Positions 23,990 to 31,939 of a stretch of DNA of 64,000 bases are shown piece by piece. A program made the translations under genes and the position numbers. The notes under the pieces are model-generated. The model was given only the letters and a program-made list of their open reading frames with translations. It did no database searches and had not been told where the DNA came from. Source of the DNA: Phycisphaerae bacterium (GTDB lineage Bacteria > Planctomycetota > Phycisphaerae > UBA1845 > UTPLA1); the NCBI GenBank assembly GCA_019636475.1, contig JAHBXN010000003.1:434001-498000 (forward strand), in the 5' to 3' direction. The first letter of the stretch is position 1; the number at the start of each line of letters is the position of its first letter.

Positions 23990-24254
23990 ACGCCTCCCCC
24001 TGCCGGCAGCACCCTCCAACCTGCAAGTCGCAGTGACCCAAATCCAGAAAAAATCCAGATTCGTCAGTCCGCGGGCGCCGCCTCGTACGTGCTAAATGCG
24101 GGTAGTGTGAAATTTTTACGCACGAAGACTAACCTTTGGGGTGAGGCGAGGTCTATGGATAGGTCCGATCCGCGGGGATCGGCCCTCCGTTCGATGCGAC
24201 GATCGGCACGCCGGAGGGTTCTCATTTCACAGTTCTGAACAAGGAGAAACGAAC

Positions 24255-24587
24255 ATGATCGCTGGCAAATGGAAACTGGCATTGGGAGTGGCGGCCGCCG
24301 TCCTCATGATGGCTGCTTTCAATCCCGCTGAGGCCCGGGCGGGAGATCATCACCGCCGAAGCCGCTCGTTCGGAGTGTATTACAACTCCGGGTATCGCGG
24401 TGACTGCGCGCCACGTGGCGGCTACTATCGCTCCGGCTACGTCAGTCGAAGCTACGGTGGCTTTGGTGGGTACTACGGCGGATACAGCTACCGGAGCTAC
24501 GGCTACAGCTCATGTGGGCCGCGATACTACGCACCTCGGCCGATTTGCGCGCCGCGGATCGTCTATTCGCGCCCCGGCTGCTGGTAA
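24255..24587 (+). CDS. small secreted Gly/Tyr-rich protein
   Basis: A 110-residue protein with a clear signal peptide (residues 1-29, ending PAEARA). The mature part is rich in Gly, Tyr, Arg and Ser with repeated YRSGY, GGYYGGY and YRSYGYSS elements, and four Cys near the end (CGPRYY, CAP, PGC). The ATG has a strong SD, AAGGAG. Low-complexity Gly/Tyr repeats recall structural or adhesive surface proteins; no enzyme family is recognised. It is monocistronic: a possible leader hairpin at 24184-24222 precedes it and a terminator follows. Confidence 0.75.
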   Translation: MIAGKWKLALGVAAAVLMMAAFNPAEARAGDHHRRSRSFGVYYNSGYRGDCAPRGGYYRSGYVSRSYGGFGGYYGGYSYRSYGYSSCGPRYYAPRPICAPRIVYSRPGCW

Positions 24588-24683
24588 TTCGACAACCTTC
24601 AATCAGAAGCGATCAGATCGACCTTTGTTGAAAATCGGCGCGTCCGATGACTTTCAGTCATCGGTAGCTCCGATAAAAAGACT

Positions 24684-24722
24684 GGGCGAGCCGCCGAGAC
24701 ATTCGACGGCTCGCCCTTCTTG
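24684..24722 (+). terminator. rho-independent terminator after the Gly/Tyr-rich gene
   Basis: A 10-bp perfect stem GGGCGAGCCG / CGGCTCGCCC with a 13-nt loop followed by TTCTT, about 100 nt after the stop. The T-tract is short. Confidence 0.65.
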
Positions 24723-24751
24723 CATTATGGCATGCAGCATTTGGTACATGA

Positions 24752-24786
24752 AACAGCCCCGCCGACACCATGCCGGAGGGGCTGTT
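24752..24786 (-). terminator. hairpin downstream of the 36-codon ORF
   Basis: A 9-bp perfect stem AACAGCCCC / GGGGCTGTT with an inner GCCG/CGGC pairing lies 24 nt after the stop of the tiny - strand ORF. The - strand T-run is short (TTTC). It probably ends that transcript. Confidence 0.5.
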
Positions 24787-24809
24787 CCAATTCGCAATTC
24801 ATGCCGCCT

Positions 24810-24920
24810 TTACAGGCCGAAGATCGCGAGAACCGCGTTAATCACTCCACTAACGACACCCCAGAGATCCCCAAAGATGCCCTGAAGTAACGCAATTAAG
24901 TCGCTGACTACCGGAATCAT
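24810..24920 (-). CDS. 36-residue hydrophobic peptide
   Basis: A tiny ORF, beginning MIPVVSDLIALLQGIF and ending VINAVLAIFGL. It has only two charged residues, both Asp, and would form one or two membrane-embedded or amphipathic helices. The SD GAGGAG lies 6-7 nt before the ATG, among the best in the window. A perfect 7-bp hairpin lies 35 nt upstream of the ATG and a 9-bp hairpin follows the stop. This organisation argues for a real gene, possibly a small membrane regulator, a peptide toxin of type I toxin-antitoxin type, or a secreted surfactant-like peptide. No family is recognised. Confidence 0.55.
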   Translation of the reverse strand: MIPVVSDLIALLQGIFGDLWGVVSGVINAVLAIFGL

Positions 24921-24955
24921 GCAAGTCTCCTCATTGAGCCCGGATCGCTGCAATG

Positions 24956-24974
24956 TTCCGACACATCGTCGGAA
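24956..24974 (-). promoter_or_regulatory. leader hairpin before the 36-residue ORF
   Basis: A perfect inverted repeat TTCCGAC-N5-GTCGGAA lies 35 nt before the ATG. There is no T-run, so it is more likely an operator or mRNA structure than a terminator. Confidence 0.4.
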
Positions 24975-25058
24975 GCACAAATAGGGTTAACGGCAAAAAT
25001 CATGCCAAAACCACAGTTGCGACTCCTATCGATGGCGAAGGCCTTATTATGGAAACCA

Positions 25059-25076
25059 ATGGGTATTTCTACCCAT
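25059..25076. repeat. 7-bp inverted repeat ATGGGTA/TACCCAT
   Basis: A perfect inverted repeat with a 4-nt spacer (TTTC) in an AT-richer stretch upstream of the tiny ORF and downstream of the glycosyltransferase gene. It could be an operator. Confidence 0.35.
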
Positions 25077-25156
25077 ACTACCGATACAAAATGACTGGTT
25101 AGCACCCAATCCACGGTCTCCTGGATCTGCAAACTCCAGAATTAACGATCCTTAAT

Positions 25157-26806
25157 CTATTTTTGACAGATGATTGAGTACTCCGGACCGATCGCAATCG
25201 TGGTCATGTTAGCCGTCATCTCGAGATCTGGAATCAGGTCATTCGCGATAACTGCGTAATAATACCCGATTAAGAGCCGGCTGATATTCTGATCGGGTCC
25301 AAAGTCAATAATCCGGACATTATTCCGCCGGGAGAGGTACTTCCCACCCAGAAAGGTCAGCTTCAGGTTATATCCATTCCGGCAGATACACGCGACGTCC
25401 CGGCTTTCCGGTAGCTCAAGAGCCAACTGACTGGCAAATCGTGTAGCGTCGCTCATCCGCTTGCACGACTTTTGTTCCATGACGGGCATGGATGCGACGA
25501 CCTGGGTCCATTCTGCAACGCAGAGAAGCAGGATTGCTGTCGCCGCACTTCGACCGACCCAGGCCCGTCGAGGCATGACCCGACTTAAGAGCGCAATTCC
25601 GAACCAGAGGATTACGCCCAGAATGATCGGCGTCAGCGGCACGAGCAATCGAACACCCTCGTCCCATGGCCAAAGTGAAAGCACCCCGAGTACTACCAGC
25701 AGGTACGCCTCGGTCGGACTTCGATACCGAAGCACCCGATACCCCGCCACCGCAATAACGATCAGCGCGACAAGGGCCGTGGTGATGCCGGCCCACGGCT
25801 TTTGAAATGCCCGCCAAAGAAGCTGATTGGGGATCACTGCACGTTTCAAATCGGCCAGTCGGTCGCCGCCGAATCGAATCAACCGCTGCCCCTGAAGCGT
25901 CAGACCGGTTGCAGTGGTCTGCTCCGCGGCGCGCGGTTGGAACCACATTCGACCGTAGCCATCCTGATCCGCGTATGCGCTCTGACGGATGTGCCACATT
26001 GCCGGCATCGACGACGCGGTGAGCAGAAAGATCAAAATCGCAATAAGTCGGTCCCGCTTTGGCAGCCTGAAGTTCGTCAATATCACGATCGCACCGATCG
26101 GCACGAGCGCCGCGCCGATCGTTCGCACCATCACGGCGACTCCCGCGAGCGCGCCACACACCGCGTGTGCGCGCCAGCGCGGCATCCGGGCTCGACCCAT
26201 TCGGTCTATGAGGATCAGCACGCCCAGTTCGATTGGCAGAAACACCATCTCGGACAGGCAAGTTGCGGCCTGAAGGAGCATCGGCCCATTCAATGAAACG
26301 AGCAAGCCAACCAGCGATGCCGCGCGCCGGCCGAGCATGGGCGTCAGCAGCACCGCTGACAGTACCGACGTCGCGATGAAACAGATCGCAAGCAGCAAAC
26401 GAATGGCTAACAAAGGTGGATCGCCAAAAAGGAGGAGCGGCGTCAGCAGAACCGGGAAACCCGGCGGCCGCATCAAGTAGGCATCGGGGAAACGCCCCGA
26501 TTCATAGAGAGATCGGGCCGATGTGAGGTAATCGAAGCTATCCGGTGTAAGTGAACACCATCCGCCAAGGGTCGGCCAGATTGTGACAACCGACAACAGC
26601 ATCGCCGGCAGCCATACAGGAATCCGATCGATCGTTGCGACGGCCGGCCGGAATGTGTCGCCGGCGGCTTCCGCGTGCCGCCCATTCGCGGCCGTGTGCC
26701 TCCTGGCGCCCGGCGTCGCGCCCTTTAGACTGATGACCGTCGCGTTTTCGTACAAATGAGCTCCGCATCCGGCGATCGTTTTCAGGCGACTTGAACGCTC
26801 GCCCAC
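25157..26806 (-). CDS. polytopic membrane glycosyltransferase (PMT/ArnT-like)
   Basis: A 549-residue protein with about ten hydrophobic segments. It has the hallmark early periplasmic loop of GT-C enzymes: LTPDSFDYLTSARSLYES (about residues 85-102) followed by MRPPGFPVLLTPL, where the acidic residue is expected to be catalytic. Such enzymes transfer sugars from polyprenyl-phosphate carriers outside the membrane. The C-terminal 90 residues are soluble, with Cys residues (CKRM, CICRNGY). The start is GTG and weakly supported; the first 45 residues are hydrophilic. Acceptor and sugar are unknown. It stands alone, divergent from the ATPase gene. Confidence 0.75.
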   Translation of the reverse strand: MGERSSRLKTIAGCGAHLYENATVISLKGATPGARRHTAANGRHAEAAGDTFRPAVATIDRIPVWLPAMLLSVVTIWPTLGGWCSLTPDSFDYLTSARSLYESGRFPDAYLMRPPGFPVLLTPLLLFGDPPLLAIRLLLAICFIATSVLSAVLLTPMLGRRAASLVGLLVSLNGPMLLQAATCLSEMVFLPIELGVLILIDRMGRARMPRWRAHAVCGALAGVAVMVRTIGAALVPIGAIVILTNFRLPKRDRLIAILIFLLTASSMPAMWHIRQSAYADQDGYGRMWFQPRAAEQTTATGLTLQGQRLIRFGGDRLADLKRAVIPNQLLWRAFQKPWAGITTALVALIVIAVAGYRVLRYRSPTEAYLLVVLGVLSLWPWDEGVRLLVPLTPIILGVILWFGIALLSRVMPRRAWVGRSAATAILLLCVAEWTQVVASMPVMEQKSCKRMSDATRFASQLALELPESRDVACICRNGYNLKLTFLGGKYLSRRNNVRIIDFGPDQNISRLLIGYYYAVIANDLIPDLEMTANMTTIAIGPEYSIICQK

Positions 26807-26957: not shown

Positions 26958-28367
26958 ATGATTGATCATGCCCGGATTCAGACTCTAGGCCAGCTCAAAG
27001 CGGCCGGCTGGAAATCAAAGTCTGTCAAGCAAGAACTGCATGACAACCTGCTCCGCCTGCTTGCCGCTCGCGAAGACTTGTTTCCCGGCATCATCGGCTA
27101 TTCGGACACGGTCATACCGGAGATCTGCATCGCCCTCCTCGCCAGGCACGACATGCTCTTTCTGGGTGAGAAAGGCCAAGCCAAAAGCCGCCTCATGCGC
27201 GGGCTGATCCGCCTGCTCGATCCATACATCCCCTATGTCGCTGGAAGCGAATTGCATGACGATCCGCTGCACCCGATGACCAGGCAAGCCAGGCGATTGA
27301 TCGCCGCAGAGGGTGACGCAACGCCGATTGCGTGGTGGCCTCGGGAGGAGCGATACGCCGAACGACTGGCGCCCGGCACGAAGTTCGCCGACCTGATCGG
27401 GGAAATCGATCCCTCCAAGCTTGCGGCCGGCACCAGCATGAGCGCTGAGGACGCGCTCCATTTCGGCCTGATCCCGCGAATGCACCGCGGCATCTTTGCG
27501 ATGAACGAGGTTCCCGAGCTGGACGAGCTCGTCCAGGTCGGCCTGTTCAATATCCTCGAAGAGCGCGATGTTCAGATTCGCGGCTACCCCGTCCGGTTTG
27601 ACATCGACGTGGTGATTCTTTTTTCCGCGAACCCATCAACCTACAACCGCAGCGGAAAGGTCATTCCCCAGTTGAAGGACCGCATCGGTTCGTTAATTCG
27701 AACGCACTATCCGCGCGAGCGAGAGATTGGAATCGCGATCATGGAGCAAGAGGCCGGGTTGGAGACCGATAAGGGGAACTTCCCGGTTCGCGTGCCGCTC
27801 TTCATGAAGGAAATCTGCGAGCAGGTCACCATCGAAGCCCGCAAGAGCGATTTTGTCGATGCACAATCCGGCGTGAGCGCCCGGCTGAGCATTTCCAACT
27901 ATCGAACCATGATCGCCAGTGCGCGGCGGCGCGCGGCCCTTCTTGGCGAGCCACTGGCCGTGCCGCGAATCTCCGATCTCGCACACATCGGTTCCTCGTC
28001 GCTTGGCAAATTGGAGCTAGACCTGATGAGCAGCCACCAGATGACGGAGTCACAGGTCATTGAGGCCGTGCAGGTCGCGGCGATTCGAAAGGTTTTCGAC
28101 GAGTATTGCGACGAACACGGAATCGAGGAGATTTCTTCAATCTTCGGCAAGGGCGTTTCGATCGAAGTGGGTGACCTGCTTCCTTCGAGCGCGTACGCCG
28201 AGCGACTCAAGCGGGTGCCGCCGGCGTGGGACAAGGCGTTCGAGGTCAACAATTCCAGCGATCCGGCGATGCGTGCGAGTTGCGTCGAATTTATTCTCGC
28301 CGGACTGTTTGCTCATGAAAAAATCTCGCGATCCGCACGACATGGCCGAGTGACGTTCGAGACCTGA
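26958..28367 (+). CDS. MoxR/magnesium-chelatase-I-type AAA+ ATPase
   Basis: A 469-residue cytoplasmic AAA+ protein. Its Walker A is atypical: [10 protein letters not shown] (about residues 74-83), giving GxxGxxKS. The segment [34 protein letters not shown] carries the Walker B-like and sensor elements of BchI/ChlI-like proteins; [16 protein letters not shown] follows as sensor 1. MoxR-type ATPases usually act with a VWA-domain partner, but none is adjacent here. A C-terminal acidic/alpha-helical domain (about 330-460) completes it. The function is probably chaperone-like remodelling; the target is unknown. Confidence 0.8.
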
Positions 28368-28753: not shown

Positions 28754-31700
28754 ATGAACTGGCTCGCCGTCACGTTCACGCTCCTTTTGCTAAATCAAGA
28801 TCCCGTCGCGGCTGCTAAGCCGGCAGACGGAACGGAACAGAAAATAGTCAATTCCGCTGAGTCCGTGACGATTGAATTGCGCCCCGGTTCCAGCACTTCG
28901 ACCGAAAGCGCTCCACGTTTCACGGCACGGTTTGCGCCGGAAACGCTGGCTGCCATCCTTGAGCAAACCGACGCTCCCCTCCCCGTCCGTCTCGGCAATG
29001 AGCGTGCGGCGATGCACGCGGCCGTGGAGAAGGTCAACATGACCGCTCTGCTCGATGAAATGCTCCCTTATCTCACCACCAACTTCGCGGACAAGTTCGT
29101 CCCGGACCGCGATGTGATCATCCGGGTGGTTCCCGAATCGCGGCAAATCGCGGTGGACGCGGCGGACCTGTTCGCCAAGCCGTACATCGGCCCGCAACAT
29201 GAGGTGATCGGGTTTCTGGTACATGACGTCACCGAGGCTGAATATCGGGCCGCCGCGCTGCGGACGATTCATCGCGCCCGTCAGATTCTCGAAGGCGGCG
29301 ATCCGGGGATGGATCGCACGACTCCGGAATACTGGAAGTGGCTTGCGGATCAGGAACTGAATCAGATCCGCGACGCTCGCAGACGCGGAGACCTCGCCGA
29401 AGTTGAGAAAAAGGAGATTCGCCAGCGCATCGCCAAATCACTGGGGCTGGCGGACGGAGGCGACCCCGCTACCGCGCCGAACTGGCTCAAGGAATCGCGT
29501 CGTTTCAGTTACATCATTCGCAACGGCGAATTCATCGAGCGGCTTCGCCCGCTGGTTCAGCGCATCAACCGCGAAATGGAAATCGCCGGATTCGCCGCGC
29601 CGGCCGGTCTCGATCGTTCGGGCATCTACTTCGATCCGGACATCGGGGATGTCGACATCGTGCTGCCTCGGGACATGCTGATCGAGTTCCTTTCCGCCGC
29701 TGATGAGTTTGAACGGCGCATGGCCGAAGACGCGATCATCAGCATCGAAGCGGTGCGATTGACGGACCGCGAGATCGTCGAAGGAGCGATCGCGTCGCGC
29801 GTGTCCGCCCAGGTTCAGGGCGTACACGACGCCAAGCGATTCAAGCGCAGTTCGGTCTTCCGGGAACTTGGGTTGAATTCGCTGCTCGCGGTCGCAAATC
29901 AGCAGTTGACGGTGCAGACGCTATCGGGGGTCGCGGCCGGCACGCTTCCGGCCGGCACGCCACCGATCACAATCGCACCGCCGACCTTGCCGCCGATTCG
30001 AGTCGGCACGGAGGTGACGACGCTTGGGAGTACCTTCTCCGTCGGCGCCGACGACGTATTTTTTGACGGGCGCGAGCAGGTCACGGGTTTCAGTTATATC
30101 GGTCCCGACGGAATCGCACACACGCTGACCACTGAAGTCGTGGACAGCATGCGGGAGTTGTGGGAACGAATCGAACGAAACCTGATTGTCCACAAGATCA
30201 AGAAGACCGGCACACTCACGGAGTTTTCCGTTCCGGTCGGACCAAACACCCGCACCTATAAGGGCATCGCGGCGCTGATTTCCCAGGAGAATCAGCAGCT
30301 CATCGTGGCGACCGGCACCGGCGCAATTAGTGAAATAAAAGCGACGGCCGGTACATGGCTTGTCGTCGAGGACTTCGTCATCGCCCCCATCCCCGGATCG
30401 TCCACGACGCTGACGCGCGAGGAAAAAGAAGAGTTCCGCCTGAAGGTGCTGCTTACCATGTTTCTGCGCGATCCGTTTGTCTCGCCGGACATCAAGCGCG
30501 ATCTATTGAGCATGAGCTCGCGGACCGCATTGCAGGCACGGCTGGACGACCTGATCGAGGAGCGCGGCTCGAAGTTTCTGCGACCGAGCGATCCGCGTCG
30601 GACGTACGCCATCGTTTTCGCCGAACGCCTTCGCACGACGCTTGGCGACAAGGAATTCGAAAAGAAAGAGCAGAATTCCACAATTACGCTCACCTTCTTT
30701 TCGAGTCAGGGTAACATCGTCCAATCGCCCGGCACCACGCAGCTTGGCGATGCCAACGACCTGACATCATTCACGACGGTTCTCTCGCCCAACAATGTGA
30801 CGCCCATTTCGTCCTTCTTCACCAAGTCAGGCAACGGCCTCGAGGGCAGTTCCATCCTCACCGATATGGAGCGGGGCGAACGGCAAAACAGCGAAAAAAG
30901 CATGACCCACCTGCTCATTCGCTCGCGGTTTCCGACGCGTGAACGCGAGTTGTCCGATCGCGTAGAGGGCCGAAACCTCGGATATTACGAGCTGCCGCTG
31001 CAGAAACGGCCGTCGTCCGATGTGGACGTCCCCTTCCTGTCCAGCTCTGAGCATCCATGCGAGCGGCTCGCCAAGCTGCGATTCGGGCTGAGCTTCCCGG
31101 TTCTCGATCCCACGCGGGTCAAGCGGCCGTTCAACCGGGTAAACCCCAATCGTTTTCCCGGGGACATTTCTCCCAAAGCCTGGGAAACGGCCACGACGCG
31201 AATGCTGATGAACCGTCGAATGATCGCCGACGCGGGCGGCGCGCGCAAGGGCCTTCAGACGGACTTTGTCAGCCGATTCGTCACTGAAGTTCGATCGCTG
31301 CTGGAGTACGACGAAGACTTCTTTCCAGCGCCGAGCGTTTCTTTGCGAAACATGGGTCACTGGAACGACGCCGATCGGATCATCACTGCACTGAACAACA
31401 GTCCCAGTCGATTTGCGCTGGATCAGCTCGTGAAGATTGTCGACGAACTTGGCGCGGAACTGATTCCTGACGAGTATGCGAACCAGTACCTGGCCTACTC
31501 GCCATCGGTCGGCTGGTTCCAACGCCGCAGACTATATCCCCTCACCGAGGAAATGATCTGGCACATCCGTCGCGACGCAGCCATTCACTTTCTGCGATTT
31601 CGCGAGGCCTACGGCGATTCATTCCTTGAGGCCGTCTCGACCATCCTCAAACTTGGCACATATCGCTCGACCGACAATCATATCCTGACGACCGGCCCCC

Positions 31701-31939
31701 TCCGCGGCTATCGCGACCTGGTGCTGTTCGATCAGAGCGGCAGCATTCACTCCGACCCCGAACTCTACAAAGCCGCGTACGACAGCTTCCTTTTCCTGAA
31801 GGACGGCGGATATGTCGGACGGATGTTTGAGAAGTCGCGGGTCGAGTTGGAGGATTTGCCGAAATCACATCGTGCGCTGATGTTCAGAGGCGAAGAGATT
31901 CTCTCCACCGTCGAGTACGATGCACATTACCATCGTTAG
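28754..31939 (+). CDS. large exported protein of unknown function
   Basis: A 1061-residue protein with a signal peptide (about 1-21, ending PVAAA). No known domain is recognised. The N-terminal third is helical and charged (IRDARRRGDLAEVEKKEIRQ near 215). The middle (about 380-560) is Thr/Pro/Gly-rich and likely beta-rich, with TLPAGTPPITIAPPTLPPI. The last 250 residues are rich in aromatics and charge, ending HYHR. No transmembrane anchor is seen at the C-terminus, so it is probably periplasmic or secreted. It is monocistronic. Codon use looks like its neighbours. Confidence 0.8.
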   Translation: MNWLAVTFTLLLLNQDPVAAAKPADGTEQKIVNSAESVTIELRPGSSTSTESAPRFTARFAPETLAAILEQTDAPLPVRLGNERAAMHAAVEKVNMTALLDEMLPYLTTNFADKFVPDRDVIIRVVPESRQIAVDAADLFAKPYIGPQHEVIGFLVHDVTEAEYRAAALRTIHRARQILEGGDPGMDRTTPEYWKWLADQELNQIRDARRRGDLAEVEKKEIRQRIAKSLGLADGGDPATAPNWLKESRRFSYIIRNGEFIERLRPLVQRINREMEIAGFAAPAGLDRSGIYFDPDIGDVDIVLPRDMLIEFLSAADEFERRMAEDAIISIEAVRLTDREIVEGAIASRVSAQVQGVHDAKRFKRSSVFRELGLNSLLAVANQQLTVQTLSGVAAGTLPAGTPPITIAPPTLPPIRVGTEVTTLGSTFSVGADDVFFDGREQVTGFSYIGPDGIAHTLTTEVVDSMRELWERIERNLIVHKIKKTGTLTEFSVPVGPNTRTYKGIAALISQENQQLIVATGTGAISEIKATAGTWLVVEDFVIAPIPGSSTTLTREEKEEFRLKVLLTMFLRDPFVSPDIKRDLLSMSSRTALQARLDDLIEERGSKFLRPSDPRRTYAIVFAERLRTTLGDKEFEKKEQNSTITLTFFSSQGNIVQSPGTTQLGDANDLTSFTTVLSPNNVTPISSFFTKSGNGLEGSSILTDMERGERQNSEKSMTHLLIRSRFPTRERELSDRVEGRNLGYYELPLQKRPSSDVDVPFLSSSEHPCERLAKLRFGLSFPVLDPTRVKRPFNRVNPNRFPGDISPKAWETATTRMLMNRRMIADAGGARKGLQTDFVSRFVTEVRSLLEYDEDFFPAPSVSLRNMGHWNDADRIITALNNSPSRFALDQLVKIVDELGAELIPDEYANQYLAYSPSVGWFQRRRLYPLTEEMIWHIRRDAAIHFLRFREAYGDSFLEAVSTILKLGTYRSTDNHILTTGPLRGYRDLVLFDQSGSIHSDPELYKAAYDSFLFLKDGGYVGRMFEKSRVELEDLPKSHRALMFRGEEILSTVEYDAHYHR

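What the first reader, a model, noticed from the sequence alone, without database searches (positions are those of the whole stretch)
24810..24974. Hidden 36-residue hydrophobic peptide gene with strong SD and flanking hairpins
The peptide is almost wholly hydrophobic. It has GAGGAG at ideal spacing, a perfect 7-bp hairpin 35 nt upstream and a 9-bp hairpin 24 nt after its stop. In a genome where many starts lack an SD, this is notable. It could be a type I toxin, a small membrane regulator or a secreted amphipathic peptide.
Basis: partly seen in the sequence, partly recalled or inferred. Interest (0 to 1): 0.55.

Follow-up and report, generated by a model that had tools for sequence, protein, structure and literature searches.

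The report
Hidden switch-controlled small peptide gene
A 36-residue peptide gene that matched none of the protein-family libraries searched appears to be a real gene, conserved in a group of planctomycete bacteria, with its own dedicated on-switch; its product looks like a long half-oily helix that probably works in or on membranes.

Summary
In detail: a 36-codon ORF (24920-24810, minus strand), GAGGAG six bases before ATG, a perfect 7-bp hairpin upstream, a 9-bp hairpin downstream. It is very likely a real gene: relatives ('A', 34-39 aa) occur in 11 of 17 genomes of its family, 9 of them by the same membrane-protein gene, with pN/pS below 1 in every pair tested. Longer relatives ('B', 37-47 aa) occur elsewhere in the order. 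No match of note in Pfam, NCBIfam, PHROGs, PADLOC or PDB sequences.

The 29 aligned peptides (1152 residues) hold no Lys, no Cys and 3 Arg, are anionic, and are predicted as one long amphipathic helix. Best reading: an activator-dependent sigma-54 gene for a membrane-acting helix; a type I toxin is unlikely. Membrane action is inferred; the activator was not identified.

The parts
24810..24920 (-). 36-codon ORF for an anionic amphipathic-helix peptide (A type)
   Evidence: homologues; pN/pS; helix model
24927..24932 (-). Shine-Dalgarno GAGGAG, 6 nt before ATG
   Evidence: a GGAG core before the ATG in the 10 other A members
24936..24941 (-). GGGCTC box between leader hairpin and SD, in G000, G001, G012A, G015A and G008 (GGGCC in G007), absent in the other 5 A members; role unknown
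24956..24974 (-). Conserved leader stem-loop near the predicted 5' end of the transcript (about +8)
   Evidence: (covarying pairs, shuffle test)
24993..25007 (-). sigma-54 promoter TGGCATG-N5-TGC (-24/-12); +1 near 24981 (inferred)
25060..25075 (-). Palindrome TGGGTA-GAAA-TACCCA, putative activator site, starting 68 bp upstream of the -24 element
   Evidence: (mean 0.03 in shuffles of the window)
24752..24786 (-). 3' hairpin after the stop (9 bp, loop 17, short T run)
24684..24716 (-). Terminator-like stem (14 pairs) followed by AGTCTTTTTA; likely end of the transcript (inferred)
25157..26806 (-). 549-aa protein, hydrophobic and glycosyltransferase-like by eye only (no Pfam or NCBIfam family over cut-off); syntenic upstream neighbour with the peptide's own promoter between them

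Best explanation
This is a genuine small-protein gene switched on by sigma-54 RNA polymerase. An unidentified enhancer-binding activator (AAA+ EBP) binds the palindrome TGGGNA-N4-TNCCCA, which starts 68-111 bp upstream of the -24 element, and opens the -24/-12 promoter. The short mRNA has a stem-loop near its 5' end (probably stabilising it), carries a strong SD and ends at an intrinsic terminator. Its 36-residue product has no recognisable signal peptide (judged by eye) and no Lys; it folds into one long anionic amphipathic helix that binds or self-assembles in a membrane, with the F/L/I/V/W face in lipid and the G/S/N/D/E face for packing or water. Shown by sequence: ORF, conservation, promoter and palindrome motifs, leader hairpin. 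Predicted: helix. Inferred: transcript start and end, 5' protection, activator binding, membrane action. Rough confidence: real protein gene 0.95, sigma-54/EBP control 0.9, membrane-acting helix 0.6; pore versus surface action is not decided.
For: Homologues: with profile A1 the nine seed rows score E 6e-17 to 6e-10 (by construction), and G002 and G007, not in the seed, were found at 1.5e-8 and 0.006. Synteny with the 549-aa gene's homologue in 9 of 11 A genomes, in G008 with one gene between; in G007 the peptide lies by the 889-aa gene that flanks this locus in G013. pN/pS 0.00-0.61 in 14 of 14 pairs chosen; G014/G005 differ by one synonymous base in 105 coding bases but by many in the flanks. 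sigma-54 score 12.3-20.0 of 20.0 in 11 of 11 A, at least 12 in 0 of 19 B and in 1 of 316 control upstream regions after removing 7 that overlap A promoters (2 of 324 before). Palindrome with at most 1 mismatch: 9 of 11 A, 0 of 19 B, 3 of 316 controls; score of 12 or more with at most 2 mismatches: 10 of 11 A, 0 of 316 controls. Spacing 78-80 bp in 9 of 11, 68 in the window (about one turn less), 111 in G007 (about three turns more). Strict composite pattern: 5 hits in 17 genomes, 4 at this gene; reversed control 0. Leader hairpin with compensatory changes, combined shuffle p 1.5e-6. rpoN over cut-off in 17 of 17 genomes; EBP-type matches in 17 of 17. Peptides: Lys 0, Cys 0, Arg 3, Asp 56, Glu 27 of 1152 residues in 29 members; helix models pLDDT 91.5 and 90.3; B columns split into hydrophobic and small/polar with a 100-degree period, p 0.003.
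Against: No expression, proteomic or functional data. Six of 17 family genomes lack A (G004 and G010 are only 75% and 87% complete); four of these six (G006, G009, G010, G011) have the neighbour gene without a peptide found beside it. The A/B split is mine, and G007 was put in A after its promoter was seen; without it the promoter count is 10 of 10. The activator was not found: no EBP group follows the A distribution. The palindrome consensus was drawn from these same sequences; G015A has 2 mismatches and G016 3, and the strict composite pattern catches only 4 of 11 A genes. G001's leader stem has an A-C mismatch and its perfect-stem shuffle test fails (p 0.66). In G012 the upstream ORF reads on through the promoter region. 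B members lack the sigma-54 promoter. TGGCAYG-N5-TGC alone is not enriched in the genome (24 sites against 20 for the reversed pattern); in the window it occurs twice, once inside another ORF (8 of 100 shuffles reach 2). One composite hit drives another gene, in G009. pN/pS of distant pairs is near synonymous saturation. Helix predictions are easily obtained for such peptides and do not show membrane action.
Confidence: 0.6

Rival explanations
1. PorA/PorH-like pore: the helices oligomerise into a water-filled, probably cation-selective channel, with small and acidic residues at interfaces and lumen. A specific form of the best explanation.
For: Size (34-47 aa) and a single amphipathic helix with Gly/Ser/Asn and acidic residues on one face. 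Papers on 37- and 40-aa alpha-helical pore formers describe a heptameric repeat (PorACur), and Gly-rich contacts with charged residues toward the lumen (a model for PorACj) (passages).
Against: No match to such a family in Pfam or among PDB chains. PorA belongs to the mycolate envelope of Actinobacteria, which Planctomycetota lack (established knowledge). No oligomer was modelled.
Confidence: 0.2
2. Curvature or packing-defect binder: the helix lies flat on membranes (like an ALPS motif or SpoVM) and marks or shapes strongly curved membrane, plausible in planctomycetes with invaginated membranes (recalled).
For: Bulky F/L/W hydrophobic face and a G/S/T/N-rich, Lys-free polar face along most of the B peptides; the ALPS features are recalled, not from a call. 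SpoVM as a small curvature-dependent protein: start of abstract in a listing only.
Against: No localisation data; net charge -1 to -4, where SpoVM is cationic (recalled). Nothing in the neighbourhoods seen points to membrane traffic.
Confidence: 0.2
3. Type I toxin of a toxin-antitoxin pair, or a secreted membrane-lytic peptide (PSM-like) induced by sigma-54.
For: Small hydrophobic peptide from a structured leader with a strong SD; such peptides are often membrane-active (recalled).
Against: No sigma-70-like site on either strand in 24600-25200 (weak); the hairpin does not cover the SD; no Rfam match at this gene and no Pfam toxin; synteny in 9 of 11; no Lys and 3 Arg in 1152 residues, unlike the toxins and PSMs recalled.
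Confidence: 0.07
4. Not a protein: a sigma-54-dependent small RNA whose ORF is incidental.
For: Conserved stem-loop near the 5' end and a terminator-like stem.
Against: Protein-level conservation with pN/pS below 1 in 14 of 14 pairs; related B peptides exist without this promoter; an SD before every A gene.
Confidence: 0.03

Closest known systems
PorA channel peptides of Corynebacterium (PorACur 37 aa, PorACj 40 aa)
   Same: Very short alpha-helical amphipathic peptides; heptameric repeat (PorACur), Gly-rich contacts in a model of PorACj (PMC3792995 and PMC5944148, passages); no classical signal peptide (recalled)
   Different: No detectable similarity; different phylum and envelope; PorACj has four Lys, the 29 peptides here have none
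PEP-CTERM genes regulated by PrsK/PrsR (Haft et al. 2006, PMC1569441)
   Same: Mostly single-gene units with an activator motif, a spacer of about 63 nt, a sigma-54 motif, then on average 71 nt to the start codon (section 7 read whole)
   Different: Their activator motif ends in TTTACA and was reported only in Proteobacteria; here it is TGGGNA-N4-TNCCCA. No EBP passes the PrsR model's cut-off (0 of 17 genomes)
SpoVM and ALPS-type amphipathic helices
   Same: Short helix expected to lie on membranes (SpoVM: start of abstract; ALPS recalled)
   Different: Anionic, no Lys; at this sensitivity found almost only in one order of Planctomycetota
Type I toxins and phenol-soluble modulins (recalled)
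   Same: Small hydrophobic or amphipathic peptide from a short structured mRNA
   Different: No antisense element seen, anionic, syntenic gene behind a sigma-54 promoter

Membership tests
sigma-54-dependent gene | -24/-12 element TGGCACG-N4-TTGC at a suitable distance from the start | tested here: met
   11 of 11 A members score 12.3-20.0 of 20.0; 1 of 316 controls reaches 12
sigma-54-dependent gene | upstream activator site | tested here: met
   conserved palindrome with 0-1 mismatch in 9 of 11, 2 in one, 3 in one; 3 of 316 controls have at most 1. Binding itself not tested
sigma-54-dependent gene | rpoN and EBPs in the genome | tested here: met
   17 of 17 genomes
sigma-54-dependent gene | transcription lost without rpoN or the activator | not testable with these tools
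   needs a culture and RNA; the cognate EBP was not identified
PEP-CTERM/PrsR regulon | activator motif ending TTTACA and PrsR over the family cut-off | tested here: not met
   different palindrome; 0 of 17 genomes over the cut-off; motif text
PorA/PorH channel | sequence similarity to PorA/PorH | tested here: not met
   no hit to such a family in Pfam for 29 members or in PDB sequences; not compared directly with PorA letters
PorA/PorH channel | short amphipathic helix with a regular repeat | tested here: met
   (prediction and sequence pattern)
PorA/PorH channel | pore formation in bilayers | not testable with these tools
   experiment needed
Type I toxin-antitoxin | antisense RNA gene overlapping or next to the toxin mRNA | tested here: inconclusive
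   0 sigma-70-like sites on either strand in 24600-25200; shuffles mean 0.6
Type I toxin-antitoxin | member of a described toxin or antitoxin-RNA family | tested here: not met
   no Pfam, no Rfam match at this gene, no PADLOC
Type I toxin-antitoxin | toxic when over-expressed | not testable with these tools
   experiment needed

The most novel reading that the evidence does not exclude
A previously undescribed planctomycete small-protein family of Lys-free, Cys-free anionic amphipathic helices, one branch of which has its own near-dedicated sigma-54/enhancer circuit, lets the cell rapidly coat, shape or permeabilise its unusual internal or outer membranes on an environmental signal.
Probability: 0.3. 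Interest if true: 0.75.

Novelty: new variant of a known kind. Interest (0 to 1): 0.6.

Why it matters
A gene easily missed for its size shows the apparatus of tight regulation (activator site, sigma-54 promoter, leader stem-loop, strong SD, terminator) conserved across genera, and belongs to a peptide family with no match in Pfam or NCBIfam. The strict palindrome-plus-promoter pattern occurs five times in 17 genomes, four times at this tiny gene, which makes two questions testable: what signal the activator reads, and what a small anionic helix does to planctomycete membranes. It also shows how promoter and leader conservation can support small genes that protein search alone can hardly see: single-sequence search gave E 0.04 for the best homologue.

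Tried and rejected
Single-sequence search with the window peptide over 61 genomes: 16 matches, one of them the window itself; the other 15 have E 0.04 or more. The G012 hit was followed and proved to be the syntenic peptide. The G041 hit (34-codon open frame) was looked at and showed no suitable ORF. The other 13 lie in open frames of 175-1271 aa and were not used.

Upstream TTG start (56 aa, 24980): rejected, because it would lie at about +2 of the predicted transcript with no room for an SD.

PrsR as the activator: rejected on motif text and family cut-off. EBP grouping: 99 of the 134 matches, from 13 of 17 genomes (G001, G005, G014, G015 left out to save calls), formed seven groups of 9-16 and eleven of one or two; none follows A presence. 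Inconclusive.

Leader elsewhere: model R1 (sequence only) over 17 genomes gave the 11 A leaders, its own training set, at E 9e-12 to 3e-6; the next hit, G012:C20 at 0.0017, lies near a cobalamin riboswitch and showed no obvious ORF by eye. Only 150 candidates per genome were scored, so misses are possible. The composite hit in G009 is not among the hits that R1 listed.

Weak profile hits in the class search: three outside the order (G117, G281, G390, E 7e-4 to 0.0098); G117 lies in a longer Leu-rich frame, G390 showed no start, G281 was not inspected. In the order, G049 (E 0.00998) lies in a 326-aa frame and I do not take it for a member, though the tally counts it. G036, G003, G015 and G002 gave further likely B-type members that are not in A4. 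The G009 50-aa candidate (L050) and L087 were left out of A4; L031 was left out because its protein is identical to L029.

A first genome-contig scan with the single 549-aa protein found no relative; the second, with alignment A2, gave five named MAG contigs. Comparing folds was not tried: a lone helix says little. The metagenome and viral collections were not scanned.

Full report
WHAT IS THERE. A terminator-like stem of 14 pairs with a T run follows at 24716-24684. The genome is a 4.4-Mb draft. Five relatives of the neighbouring gene lie on contigs labelled Planctomycetota, Phycisphaerae or Phycisphaerales MAGs.

IT IS VERY LIKELY A REAL, CONSERVED GENE. Single-sequence search gave one informative hit, E 0.04 in G012, which proved to be a 37-aa ORF with its own SD directly downstream of a homologue of the window's 549-aa gene. 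That gene looks like a membrane glycosyltransferase by eye only; Pfam and NCBIfam give it no family over cut-off. Looking beside its homologues in other family members gave further peptides with ATG and SD. Profile A1 (9 rows) then matched its nine seed rows and two further A-type members, in G002 and G007, so 11 of the 17 genomes of the family have one. Nine of the 11 lie at the 549-aa gene's homologue (in G008 with one gene between); G002 does not, and G007 lies beside the 889-aa gene that flanks this locus in G013. Of the six genomes without A, four have the neighbour gene without a peptide found beside it. Nei-Gojobori pN/pS is below 1 in all 14 pairs tested (0.00-0.61), though distant pairs are near saturation. 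G014 and G005 differ by one synonymous base in 105 coding bases, against many differences in the flanks. G013 and G002 keep promoter, hairpin, SD, peptide and terminator where the sequence further upstream has diverged.

THE FAMILY. Profiles A3 and A4 find a second branch, B: 37-47 aa in the 19 members used, mostly ATG (GTG in L080 and L081) with an SD-like stretch. The A/B split is mine; G007 was placed in A after its promoter was seen. In the order, 28 of 114 genomes have a match at E 0.01 or better with A3, which includes its own rows. In the class sample it is 32 of 397 with A4, 29 of them in the order. In the phylum sample only the window's own genome matches at E 0.001 or better, 1 of 392, which also serves as a negative control. 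The 29 members of A4 show no match of note: best E-values 0.021 in Pfam (six members touch one Pfam family, best 0.07), 0.091 in NCBIfam, 0.041 in PHROGs, none in PADLOC and 0.73 in PDB sequences. In 5 of the 8 family genomes with a B-type hit it lies just downstream of genes of one cluster, two of which were scanned and are redoxin/AhpC-TSA; elsewhere its neighbours vary.

THE SWITCH. All 11 A genes have a -24/-12 sigma-54 promoter whose -12 end lies 67-88 nt before the ATG, scoring 12.3-20.0 of 20.0; none of 19 B genes reaches 12. Among other genes in the fetched loci 2 of 324 upstream regions reach 12, and 1 of 316 after removing 7 that overlap A promoters. Upstream of the -24 element lies the palindrome TGGGNA-N4-TNCCCA: 0 mismatches in five A genes, 1 in four, 2 in one, 3 in one. 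It starts 78-80 bp before the -24 element in nine, 68 in the window and 111 in G007, that is about one turn less and three turns more. The consensus was drawn from these sequences; as a control, 3 of 316 other regions have at most 1 mismatch, none combines 2 or fewer with a sigma-54 score of 12, and 0 of 19 B genes have at most 1. The strict composite pattern occurs five times in 17 genomes, four of them at this gene (so it catches 4 of 11 A genes), with no hit for the reversed pattern. The fifth, in G009, precedes a secreted-looking protein that I take for FecR-like by eye (Pfam gave no match), beside alginate-export, O-antigen-ligase and GT87 genes; it too has a leader hairpin by eye. In the window's genome 24 sites fit TGGCAYG-N5-TGC, hardly more than the reversed pattern (20), and only the peptide's has a perfect palindrome within 250 bp; the next best have 1 and 2 mismatches at other distances. 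rpoN is over cut-off in 17 of 17 genomes and EBP-type matches occur in 17 of 17. Which EBP acts here is unknown. It is not the PrsR system of Haft et al., whose activator motif ends in TTTACA (section read whole) and whose PrsR model is over its cut-off in 0 of 17 genomes.

THE LEADER HAIRPIN. In the window it starts 18 nt after the -12 TGC; in the other A genes 12-21 nt after it, that is at about +1 to +10, taking +1 about 12 nt downstream of the -12 element (recalled convention). In ten of the 11 the stem is perfect (G-U allowed), 6-9 bp with a loop of 4-6; G001 has an A-C mismatch. In my hand alignment of the arms, pairs change on both sides at stem positions 1, 2, 3, 6 and 7, while positions 4 and 5 are constant C-G and G-C. 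Dinucleotide-shuffle p values are 0.014-0.118 for ten leaders and 0.66 for G001; combined p 1.5e-6, with related pairs counted as independent. Five members share GGGCTC before the SD, and G007 has GGGCC. Rfam has no match at this gene in the window or in the four homologous loci scanned. A stem-loop at the 5' end commonly protects mRNA from decay (recalled); that role is inferred here.

THE PEPTIDE. The 29 peptides hold 1152 residues: no Lys, no Cys, 3 Arg, 56 Asp, 27 Glu; all are net negative. AlphaFold2 gives one helix, residues 3-33 for the window peptide (pLDDT 91.5, alignment of 9) and 2-40 for a B member (pLDDT 90.3, single sequence). In B the columns split almost completely into hydrophobic and small/polar, with F11, F16, F18, F27 and L30 invariant in 19 of 19 and a 100-degree period (p 0.003 against shuffled columns). 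That is an amphipathic helix over nearly the whole length, longer than a simple membrane span needs (inference).

HOW IT MOST LIKELY WORKS. A signal activates an EBP; the EBP binds the palindrome and opens the sigma-54 promoter; a short mRNA with a stem-loop near its 5' end gives a burst of an amphipathic helix that acts at a membrane. Whether it makes pores (as the 37-40 aa PorA peptides do; passages of PMC3792995 and PMC5944148), senses or shapes curvature, or regulates a membrane partner cannot be told from sequence. A type I toxin is unlikely, for the reasons given under the rivals.

NOVELTY. I found no description of this family or circuit. Paper searches for Planctomycetes with sigma54 and promoter (14 papers, all listed), small proteins with Planctomycet and hydrophobic (13, all listed), and Phycisphaer, small protein, sigma54 in twos (84, 8 listed) showed none in their titles and abstract beginnings; only an open-licence library was searched. 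The 2025 sigma-54 survey (PMC12316311, passages) discusses Planctomycetota, but the passages seen mention no such gene. The text of the GMSC catalogue paper (PMC11364881, term search and passages) does not name Planctomycetota; whether its data hold members was not tested.

Noticed in passing
L182 / L205 (G009:C4:18180-18277, minus): The same palindrome plus sigma-54 arrangement, with a leader hairpin by eye, precedes a secreted-looking (FecR-like by eye) protein beside alginate-export, O-antigen-ligase and GT87 genes, which hints that the activator's regulon touches surface polysaccharide.
   Followed up: partly
L223:582-769: Cobalamin riboswitch (Rfam RF00174, 104.6 bits) close to a weak leader-model hit without an obvious ORF in G012.
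   Followed up: partly
window 24141-24587, plus strand: Convergent ORF that holds a small Gly/Tyr/Arg-rich protein with what looks like a signal peptide (true start probably downstream of the listed GTG); no Pfam family over cut-off and no NCBIfam match.
   Followed up: no
window 28754-31939, plus strand: 1061-aa ORF with no Pfam match, downstream of an AAA protein that matches the Mg-chelatase family (26958-28367).
   Followed up: no
L119, L122, L126, L129, L134: In 5 of the 8 family genomes with a B-type hit, the peptide lies just downstream, on the same strand, of genes of one cluster; two of them were scanned and are redoxin/AhpC-TSA.
   Followed up: partly
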